This document shows positions 54,001 to 55,545 of a stretch of DNA of 64,000 nucleotides, piece after piece. The notes below the pieces were generated by a model. That model was not told where the DNA came from and did no database searches. It saw nothing but the letters and a program-made list of their open reading frames with translations. The stretch lies in NCBI GenBank assembly GCA_016795155.1, contig JAEUIE010000016.1:1-64000 (forward strand), given 5' to 3'. The translations under genes were made by a program, and so were the position numbers. Source of the stretch: Planctomycetia bacterium (GTDB lineage: Bacteria; Planctomycetota; Planctomycetia; Gemmatales; HRBIN36). Each line of letters begins with the position of its first letter. The stretch's first letter is position 1.

Positions 54001-54494
54001 AGCGTGTGCAACATGTGGTGCGTATCTTCGGTGCCAAACCCGGAGAGGACGATCCGTTTCTTGTCAGCCTTGCCATCGCCATTGGTATCGGAGAAGTGGA
54101 GCAGCTCGGTACTGTTGGCCACATAGCAACCACCATCGCCGGGGAGCAGCCCGGTGGGGATGAGCAGGCCATCCGCGAAGACAGTGGTCTTGTCAGCCAC
54201 GCCGACACCTTTGGTGTCTTCCAGGATGATGATCTTGTCGTTAGCCTTCTGCCCGGGTTTGATCTGTGGGTACACTTCGGACGAAGCAATCCAGAGCCGA
54301 CCGGCCGCATCGAAGTTCATCTGAATCGGTTTGGCGAGCAACGGATCAGCAGCGAACAGGTTGACCTCAAAACGAGGATCGACAATGAACGTCTTTCGTT
54401 CGAGTTCAGGATCAGGATCGGGGATGGTAGCGTCCCGTTGGGCGTAGATGGGAGATGGAAGAAGAAGGACGAGAAGCCAAAGTAGACGCGGCAT
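51030..54494 (-). CDS. PVC-type haem-binding dehydrogenase-like protein with HEAT repeats
   Basis: A 1,154-residue exported protein. The ATG at 54494 gives a clean signal peptide (MPRLLWLLVLLLPSPIYAQ). A beta-propeller follows (about 25-400; AADPLLAKPIQMNFDAAGRLWIA, GPDGAIYIADWYNP), then helical HEAT-like repeats (about 520-850). A cytochrome c-like domain (about 875-1000) has CLKCHGIGGSGGQVGPDLTSIG and the Met ligand in SLMPEGL. A strand-rich ligand-binding-like end (about 1030-1154) completes it. This architecture is a planctomycete hallmark and is thought to oxidise sugars or similar compounds. Its start codon lies inside a 23-bp repeat also found at the end of the preceding gene. Confidence 0.92.
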   Translation of the reverse strand: MPRLLWLLVLLLPSPIYAQRDATIPDPDPELERKTFIVDPRFEVNLFAADPLLAKPIQMNFDAAGRLWIASSEVYPQIKPGQKANDKIIILEDTKGVGVADKTTVFADGLLIPTGLLPGDGGCYVANSTELLHFSDTNGDGKADKKRIVLSGFGTEDTHHMLHTLRWGPDGRMYMMQSIYIHSHIETPHGPRRLNAGGIWRFKPQTMELDVFARGWVNPWGLAFDRYGQAFVTDGAGGEGINYVIPGGYYVTAADAKRIFPGLNPGSPKFCGLEVTSGRHLPDDWQGNLLTNDFRGHRVCRFVLKDDGAGFASIEQPELIKSTHPAFRPIDVKMGPDGAIYIADWYNPIIQHGEVDFRDPRRDVTHGRIWRVTAKGRPLVKKPKLDKAATFELLLEHMIQPEQWTREMAKQVWLQRLFHSKNDGASQQQTLEFQRIFLDEVKALNSKPRFEDLAKIELNLMEYYMLMRSFMTQPPTFFQLEESKNAAIRSLVARSIANEDNKIFLRVGEHDKRIAFLRQFLSDPHPRVRMEAVLALSHLTEIEALPLVLSVLNHPMDRFLDYALWLTVRELEPHWLPAFRAGKLKFDDPKHLLFAVQASGSPELVEPLLKYLQQNDLKGETADALWNQVAKLGGPKELQILWEQCLDSKLSDDQRLKRLQALEVAKANPSGEKKFLEQLLNSNQTAVQALRLAGKWKHELLRALVTETAKSDSKPIEQRLAALDALGSYGAVDALKELTSSRNTSIQLEALLRLIRFDLQAASPLAARYLSQAKEADLNRLLPALLQTKGGPQSFTTALENASVPPDVAKIAIRIARSTGQVHQPLIDAFTKAGKLTTAKWEATPAVYKEVLEAVTKEGNAARGELVYRQKELNCLKCHGIGGSGGQVGPDLTSIGASAQPDYLLESLLLPSKAIKENYNTTVVATVDGKVLTGIKQRENKDELVLRDAEGKDITIPIKDIDDRKDGKSLMPEGLVDGLTKQELVDLTRFLTELGKVGNYSVGTARIARTWEVLVPNAAANEAILRNRLSGAVMMPQGLIWNAEYTTVAGLLPLDVLPDVYVRKKGEWSGIDTQIGFARTRLEVGTTGEVELTINDVKGLQLWLDQTAVELSPTIKLKLTPGVHVLTLAVNKKERSEGVRLELKEGQARWVLGR

Positions 54495-54499
54495 CCTGC
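54477..54499 (+). repeat. 23-bp inverted repeat, copy A (contains the start codon of the PVC-haem gene)
   Basis: The plus-strand 23-mer from 54477 to 54499 is the exact reverse complement of 54614-54636. On the minus strand it supplies GCAGG-ATG and codons 1-6 (MPRLLW). With the next bases it also forms an imperfect palindrome, GACGCGGCA-TCC-TGCGGCGTC, with one mismatch. Confidence 0.9.
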
Positions 54500-54613
54500 G
54501 GCGTCCACTGTTTAGTAGTCCCCGTTGCGGAATTGTCTTGTCGTTGGAATAGCTATGATTCACGGTCGTTCCTTGATTCAATTGGTGATGTGGTTATCAC
54601 GCTGGCTGACGCG

Positions 54614-54636
54614 GCAGGATGCCGCGTCTACTTTGG
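54614..54636 (-). repeat. 23-bp inverted repeat, copy B (contains the stop codon of the SGNH gene)
   Basis: Exact inverted copy of 54477-54499. On the minus strand it reads CCAAAGTAG, giving the last two codons (Pro-Lys) and the TAG stop at 54630-54628. With flanking bases it forms a perfect palindrome GACGCGGCA-GGA-TGCCGCGTC (54608-54628). The two copies bracket 114 bases, the whole gap between the genes. Confidence 0.9.
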
Positions 54637-55545
54637 AGGCAATTTCCCCTTCATCTCGTTAATCTGCTTGTCCAGTTCTGCAATAAGTGGCTCGAATTGC
54701 GGAATCTCTTTAGCATTGTTCCCTTGCTCGTGCTTGCGAAACAAAAAGAGATAGGTATTGTTCTGCGGGCGGTATTGGTGGAAGTAAAGCTCATCCTTGC
54801 GCTTGATGAGTTTGGTCACAGGCGTCCAGTCTCTTGGTGGATTATCTGCAGGAATCAATACGATCCCAGGCGGCCCTGCTGCATTGCGGCCTTCCGCAAC
54901 GATCACAGCAGTGATGATTTTTCCTGCGAGTTCCTGATAGCCGAGATCATTGGGCAGGATGCCATCATCGGTCTTGGGTGGCTGTTGCTTTGTCACGTTG
55001 TTTTTATTGGGCTGATAGACATCATGCAGATCCACCAGCAAGGCACCTCGTTCCTTGGCCAGCGTTTTGATGACAGCATCATACTCAGCCTGTGAAAAAG
55101 TTGGCGACACTTTAGCGGCAACAGGGGTAGGAATGGTCAGAAAGATACAACGAGTTTCAGGGGTTGCTATGTCAGCAAGTAACTGCCGATACTGCTTCTC
55201 GAACTTTTCTACCCCTGGTTTCCCGGCAAACGCTTCACAGGTGCCGTATCCCAGTATAAGCAGAGTAGGTTTTGCCGCTTTCACTTGTTCTACCAGCGTA
55301 CGGTAGCCATCGGCCTGGGTGCCAAACCCTGCACGGGCCTCGCCCCAGACAGTGTCGCCACTCCAGCCGAGATTACGGACAGTAAACTTTTTGTCCTTAT
55401 GAGTCATGTGCAGCAGCAGTTCGACTTGGCCGAACTGCTGTTCCCTTTCCACCAGTGCTCCGCCAACCATGACAATGCGGTCGCCGTCTTTGATGTCAAA
55501 AGAAGGGGCAGGGAGGGAAAAGAGGACAAGTAGCGGAATGAGCAT
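54628..55545 (-). CDS. SGNH/GDSL-fold exported protein with degenerate active site
   Basis: A 305-residue protein with a short signal peptide (MLIPLLVLFSLPAPSF). The SGNH fold is visible: block I at DGDRIVMVGGALVEREQ, block II at RNLGWSGDTVWGEAR, block III at LILGYGTCEAF and block V at DDGILPNDLGYQELAGKI. The nucleophile Ser of GDS is replaced (GGA) and the catalytic His of DGIHP is Leu (DGILP). It is therefore probably not a classical esterase and may bind a ligand instead. It precedes the PVC-haem gene on the same strand with a 133-base gap, so both are probably one transcription unit. The last codons and stop lie in repeat copy B. Confidence 0.85.
   Translation of the reverse strand: MLIPLLVLFSLPAPSFDIKDGDRIVMVGGALVEREQQFGQVELLLHMTHKDKKFTVRNLGWSGDTVWGEARAGFGTQADGYRTLVEQVKAAKPTLLILGYGTCEAFAGKPGVEKFEKQYRQLLADIATPETRCIFLTIPTPVAAKVSPTFSQAEYDAVIKTLAKERGALLVDLHDVYQPNKNNVTKQQPPKTDDGILPNDLGYQELAGKIITAVIVAEGRNAAGPPGIVLIPADNPPRDWTPVTKLIKRKDELYFHQYRPQNNTYLFLFRKHEQGNNAKEIPQFEPLIAELDKQINEMKGKLPPK

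What the first reader, a model, noticed from the sequence alone, without database searches (positions are those of the whole stretch)
54477..54636. A 23-bp inverted repeat provides the stop codon of one gene and the start codon of the next
The 23-mer at 54477-54499 is repeated exactly in inverse orientation at 54614-54636, with 114 bases between. On the minus strand copy B carries the TAG stop of the SGNH-like gene, and copy A carries the ATG plus the first six codons (MPRLLW) of the signal peptide of the PVC-haem gene. Copy B is itself a perfect 9-bp-arm palindrome and copy A nearly so. This looks like a MITE or REP-type element that inserted between the genes and was taken up into coding sequence at both edges. 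The paired hairpins could also control translation of the second gene.
Basis: partly seen in the sequence, partly recalled or inferred. Interest (0 to 1): 0.65.

Follow-up and report, generated by a model that had tools for sequence, protein, structure and literature searches.

The report
REP dimer bridging two operon genes
A small mobile hairpin repeat of a known bacterial kind (a GTAG-type REP pair) sits between two genes of an old, apparently planctomycete operon, where its own ends now serve as the stop codon of the first gene and the start codon of the second; unrelated repeats of similar shape occupy the same spot in many relatives.

Summary
In detail: a 23-bp exact (29-bp with one mismatch) inverted repeat lies at the junction of a GDSL/SGNH hydrolase gene and a DUF7133/cytochrome-c ("PVC-haem") gene. 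It is not unique: the core occurs 13 times in this genome (control 0), 10 copies forming five head-to-head pairs with GTAG outward. Only one of 101 other genomes of the order has an exact match. This is a GTAG REP dimer (BIME/REPIN-like). The genome has RAYT-type transposases flanked by other GTAG/GTGG REPs, but none flanked by this one. Copy B's GTAG gives the TAG stop (a known habit of GTAG REPs). Copy A gives the ATG and MPRLLW; 47 orthologues support that start position. Only this site, of eight, overlaps genes on both sides. Orthologous junctions lack this element, but 18 of 57 compact ones carry other inverted repeats of at least 12 bp, about 1.6-fold more than other junctions in the same genomes (p 0.003-0.05, exploratory). 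Proposed effect (inferred): the arms pair in the mRNA (z -7), hiding the second start until a ribosome reaches the first stop. New member of a known kind, with an unusual double use and a possible insertion hotspot.

The parts
54477..54505 (+). REP copy A: GTAG-tagged hairpin (1 mismatch) with 5-nt CCAAA flank shared with copy B
   Evidence: one of 13 genome copies
54608..54636 (-). REP copy B: GTAG plus perfect 9-bp-arm hairpin, CCAAA flank
54506..54607 (.). spacer of the head-to-head dimer; the ~14 nt next to copy B resemble the inner end of other dimers, the rest is unrelated
   Evidence: 38-40 nt alignments of the B end to the C29 and C57 dimers, 85-89% identity
54628..54631 (-). GTAG tag of copy B; its TAG (54630-54628) is the stop codon of the SGNH gene
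54482..54485 (+). GTAG tag of copy A (read as CTAC within codons 4-5 of the PVC-haem gene)
54492..54494 (-). ATG start codon of the PVC-haem gene, inside the hairpin of copy A
   Evidence: Met 18 residues before the conserved AQ motif; 47 orthologues have 18-36, median 19
54561..54563 (-). alternative GTG start with AAGGA 6 nt upstream; would add 23 residues not seen in relatives
54628..55545 (-). SGNH/GDSL hydrolase gene (305 aa)
   Evidence: PF13472
51030..54494 (-). PVC-type haem protein gene (DUF7133 + HEAT + cytochrome c), 1154 aa from the ATG
   Evidence: PF23500, PF13646, PF00034

Best explanation
The segment is a GTAG-tagged REP dimer in head-to-head arrangement (a BIME/REPIN-like miniature element, about 150-160 bp), one of eight insertion sites of a small, nearly genome-specific family. 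It inserted in the short junction of an old SGNH / PVC-haem operon. Its outer ends lie at the two gene borders, so that GTAG of copy B became the amber stop of the first gene and the hairpin of copy A became the start codon and first codons of the second gene's signal peptide. SHOWN: the repeat family, dimer form, stop and start positions, conservation of the operon and of the start position, and absence of the element in relatives. INFERRED: movement by a RAYT-type transposase acting in trans or since lost. INFERRED: on the shared mRNA the two arms pair and mask the second start codon (and burden termination of the first gene), so the second gene is translated mainly when ribosomes reach the first gene's stop and open the stem.
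For: 13 copies of the core in the genome, control 0; 10 of them in five GTAG-outward pairs 117-150 bp long, inner ends partly homologous. Across the other 101 genomes of the order only one exact match. Other sites lie in intergenic DNA, several just after stop codons. Seven Y1-transposase-domain genes in the genome; three are flanked by other GTAG/GTGG hairpin pairs. A deltaproteobacterial MAG rich in this core has a single Y1 gene, with GTAGAAGCGGCTTCCAGCCGCTTC upstream. Operon order conserved in relatives, PVC-haem orthologues 58-80% identical, start Met conserved and mostly without Shine-Dalgarno. GTAG REPs often give TAG stops (PMC3733652); 12 of 90 copies of this core end an ORF of at least 150 aa. 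RNA fold of the junction -70.3 kcal/mol, z -7.05, with the ATG paired to copy B.
Against: No transposase flanked by this exact REP was found in this genome. No other species of the genus is held, so the exact empty site is not available; the comparison is with more distant genomes at 58-80% protein identity. A GTG start with a better Shine-Dalgarno lies 69 nt upstream in frame. MPR-type N termini also occur in a few relatives without the repeat (L203, L209, L256), so part of the MPRL match could be ancestral. No expression data; the regulatory step is prediction only.
Confidence: 0.8

Rival explanations
1. The REP dimer is there but the second gene starts upstream at GTG 54563; the repeat is then internal coding sequence and no start codon is provided.
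For: AAGGA lies 6 nt before this GTG; the frame is open from TTG 54581.
Against: 47 orthologues put Met 18-36 residues (median 19) before the conserved AQ, as the hairpin ATG does (18); only 9 of 48 starts have a Shine-Dalgarno-like tetramer, and the 23-residue extension is not seen in relatives.
Confidence: 0.15
2. The inverted repeat is a native intercistronic regulatory or terminator structure of the operon, not a mobile element.
For: Dyads at this junction are over-represented in relatives; the fold is very stable.
Against: The sequence is dispersed in this genome and absent from the relatives' junctions; the relatives' dyads differ in sequence, and the two tested belong to their own dispersed families; no terminator pattern.
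Confidence: 0.07
3. Two independent single REP insertions, or a REP plus local inverted duplication, rather than one dimer insertion.
For: The spacer middle is not homologous to other dimers' spacers; CCAAA flanks are symmetric, as a local inverted copy could give.
Against: Four other dimers have the same orientation and similar size; the inner end next to copy B resembles the other dimers.
Confidence: 0.2
4. Classical MITE with terminal inverted repeats and target-site duplication.
For: 23-29 bp terminal inverted repeats, about 160 bp, multi-copy.
Against: No direct repeat at the flanks; GTAG tag and hairpins point to RAYT/IS200-type chemistry, which leaves no duplication (established knowledge of that family).
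Confidence: 0.05

Closest known systems
GTAG REP superfamily, head-to-head dimers (Di Nocera et al. 2013, PMC3733652)
   Same: GTAG tag at one end, short hairpin, dimers with GTAG outward and spacers of mostly 20-100 bp, preferred site just downstream of ORFs, TAG stop codons provided; reported from the PVC superphylum
   Different: This core was not compared with that paper's 24 families (the string GCGGC does not occur in its main text); start-codon provision is not discussed there (0 occurrences of 'start codon')
REPIN/BIME with RAYT
   Same: inverted REP pair, multi-copy, Y1 transposases in the genome
   Different: small family (13 copies), no cognate RAYT found here
Rickettsia palindromic elements (RPE) and intragenic REPs
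   Same: palindromic elements inside coding sequence, including N termini (PMC3733652)
   Different: those lie within ORFs; here the element forms the border of two genes
E. coli REPs within 15 nt of a stop codon (Liang et al. 2015, as cited in PMC12306157)
   Same: stem directly at the termination codon
   Different: here the stop codon itself is part of the stem and the other arm holds the next start codon; effect untested

Membership tests
GTAG REP | unpaired GTAG tag at one end of a 20-40 bp palindrome | tested here: met
   GTAG + 8/9-bp-arm hairpin, 3-nt loop
GTAG REP | multiple dispersed copies | tested here: met
   13 copies at 8 sites on 7 contigs, control 0
GTAG REP | mainly extragenic, near 3' ends of genes | tested here: met
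   the other sites are intergenic, several shortly after a stop codon
GTAG REP | association with a RAYT gene | tested here: inconclusive
   RAYT-like genes with other REPs in the genome; none flanked by this REP; a foreign Y1 gene has the variant upstream
REPIN/BIME (REP dimer) | two REPs in inverted orientation forming one unit | tested here: met
   five GTAG-outward pairs of 117-150 bp
REPIN/BIME (REP dimer) | transposed as a unit | tested here: inconclusive
   C29 and C57 dimers 80% identical over 126 nt; window spacer only partly similar; no exact empty site
MITE (TIR with target-site duplication) | direct target-site duplication | tested here: not met
   flanks show inverted CCAAA symmetry, no direct repeat
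Intrinsic terminator | GC stem followed by T run | tested here: not met
   none found

The most novel reading that the evidence does not exclude
The SGNH/PVC-haem operon junction is a recurrent docking site: unrelated REP-like dimers have been installed there independently in many lineages because an intercistronic dyad is favoured, giving convergent, lineage-specific control of two coupled genes; in this species the element also supplies both the stop and the start codon.
Probability: 0.25. Interest if true: 0.65.

Novelty: new member of a known kind. Interest (0 to 1): 0.42.

Why it matters
It is a clean case of a selfish hairpin repeat becoming the punctuation (stop and start) between two conserved genes. 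The orthologous junctions in nearly 60 related genomes, many with other repeats, offer a natural series for testing whether REP insertions between cistrons are neutral or selected.

Tried and rejected
Gene fission by the repeat: a fused SGNH-PVC paralogue exists in this genome (C50), but orthologues across the order are two separate genes, so the split is ancestral. Upstream GTG start: disfavoured by 47 orthologues. Terminator: none. Cognate RAYT in this genome: none of seven Y1 genes carries this REP. RAYT proteins in the 66 loci holding the core: no tblastn hit. 'ATG in the hairpin as a start' in other copies: 9 of 47 head a long frame, but several are mirror frames of genes ending at the same REP, so this is not counted as evidence. 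Family-level relatives: only distant SGNH paralogues (about 30% identity), no empty site. Literature on REP-provided start codons: one unrelated paper.

Full report
WHAT IS THERE. Copy B reads CCAAA-GTAG-ACGCGGC-ATCCT-GCCGCGTC; copy A has one C-to-G change in the inner half. On the minus strand the TAG of copy B's GTAG (54630-54628) ends the SGNH/GDSL hydrolase gene (305 aa; PF13472). The ATG inside copy A (54494-54492) begins MPRLLWLLVLLLPSPIYAQRDA..., the signal peptide of a DUF7133/HEAT/cytochrome-c protein.

IT IS A REPEAT FAMILY. The assembly (5.28 Mb, 68 contigs, 97% complete) holds 13 copies of the core at 8 sites and none of the reversed control. Ten copies form five pairs, always with GTAG outward, 117-150 bp from tag to tag: the window pair, C29, C57, C50 and C21. 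The C29 and C57 pairs are 80% identical over 126 nt including the spacer. The window pair shares with them only its ends and about 14 nt next to copy B. Three further copies look single. The other sites are intergenic, several starting a few nt after a stop codon; only the window pair overlaps plausible genes on both sides. Among the other 101 genomes of the order only one exact match was found, so the family is almost private to this genome within its order. The same core is nevertheless present in Planctomycetes of other groups, Hydrogenedentota, Acidobacteria, Myxococcota, deltaproteobacterial MAGs and others.

FAMILY ASSIGNMENT. GTAG plus a short hairpin, head-to-head dimers with GTAG outside, spacers of tens of bp, location just after genes, and TAG stops provided to genes are the published features of GTAG REPs (Di Nocera et al. 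2013, PMC3733652). In the 90 copies of this core collected here, 12 provide the stop of an ORF of at least 150 aa. The genome encodes seven Y1-transposase-domain proteins; three sit between GTAG/GTGG hairpin pairs of other sequence (L017, L022, L023), i.e. they look like REPtrons. None carries the present REP. A deltaproteobacterial MAG with many copies and a single Y1 gene has the GTAGAAGCGGCTTCCAGCCGCTTC variant upstream of it (L169), which hints at the cognate transposase type. There is no target-site duplication, so it is not a classical MITE.

IS THE START CODON REALLY IN THE REPEAT? The ORF is open further upstream (GTG 54563 with AAGGA at a good distance). In 47 orthologues the Met lies 18-36 residues (median 19) before the conserved AQ motif; in the window it is 18. 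The window's 23-residue extension is not seen in relatives, and only 9 of the 48 starts have a Shine-Dalgarno-like tetramer. The ATG in copy A is therefore very probably the real start. A few relatives without the repeat also begin MPRL/MPRF (L203, L209, L256), so it cannot be said how many of the six codons were changed by the insertion.

RELATIVES. SGNH followed by PVC-haem is conserved across the order, with PVC-haem orthologues at 58-80% identity. None of the junctions read contains this REP. Junctions without a dyad of at least 12 bp have a median gap of 55 nt, those with one 132 nt (Mann-Whitney p 1e-4), as expected if dyads are insertions into a short junction; the window gap to the ATG is 133 nt. 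In genus g20, G045 has a pair of GTTCCCACGCTCCGCGTGGGAAC repeats at the junction, inside the N-terminal reading frame of the second gene; its congener G046 lacks that repeat there, although both genomes carry it elsewhere (11 and 13 exact copies in all). In G101 the junction dyad belongs to a 141-copy family mostly in inverted pairs. Overall 18 of 57 compact junctions (gap under 600 nt, window excluded) have an inverted repeat of at least 12 bp, of many different sequences.

IS THE JUNCTION SPECIAL? Against other co-directional junctions of similar gap in the same loci (up to 19 kb each), excluding the window, dyads of at least 12 bp are commoner: 17 of 34 against 20 of 120 for gaps 60-300 (Fisher 1.5e-4). 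Restricted to within-genome comparison it is 14 observed against 8.7 expected (p 0.003), and for dyads of at least 16 bp 10 against 6.9 (p 0.05). Gene calls were crude (longest ORFs), species are related, several gap and length thresholds were tried without correction, and the hypothesis arose from these same loci. I treat this as a lead, not a result.

MECHANISM. As RNA the junction folds with the two arms paired (-70.3 kcal/mol, shuffles -41.5, z -7.05); each arm alone also forms a hairpin of about -17 kcal/mol. Either way the second ATG lies in structure. A ribosome finishing the first gene must open the base of the stem to read the TAG, and the ATG pairs roughly 10-15 bp into the stem, so coupling of the second gene's initiation to the first gene's translation is a natural reading. 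REPs within 15 nt of a stop are reported to stall ribosomes in E. coli (Liang et al. 2015, as cited in PMC12306157). No promoter- or terminator-like site was found between the genes. All of this step is inference.

VERDICT. The kind is known; the double provision of stop and start, and the repeated occupation of the same operon junction by unrelated repeats, are the parts worth following.

Noticed in passing
L017 (C8:115331), L022 (C23:57911), L023 (C32:35497) of the window's genome: Three Y1/RAYT-type transposase genes, each flanked by pairs of a different GTAG/GTGG hairpin (GTAGCCAGGGGC, GTAGTCATCACTC, GTGGCACTGT): at least three other REPtron-like families in one genome.
   Followed up: partly
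L025/L117 (G000:C50:131176-133158) and L116 (G006:C47): SGNH-like and PVC-haem-like matches lie in a single open frame (1753 and 1576 codons) in paralogues, suggesting the two junction proteins act together.
   Followed up: no
L121/L191 (G045) versus L127/L196 (G046): A different palindromic repeat pair lies inside the N-terminal reading frame of the PVC-haem gene (encoding ...FPRSAWERN...) in one species and is absent from that place in its congener.
   Followed up: partly
G101, e.g. C11:46820-46896: 141 copies (up to 2 mismatches) of AGAGCCCCACTGCGTGAGCGGTGGGG, mostly as inverted pairs about 51 bp apart start to start: a large REPIN-like family, one pair at the orthologous junction.
   Followed up: partly
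L046-L111: The core GTAGACGCGGC-NTCNN-GCCGCGTC occurs in MAGs of several phyla (Planctomycetes, Hydrogenedentota, Acidobacteria, Myxococcota, deltaproteobacteria, Kiritimatiellaeota), suggesting an old or horizontally spread REP type; the search pattern itself fixed the TC in the loop.
   Followed up: partly
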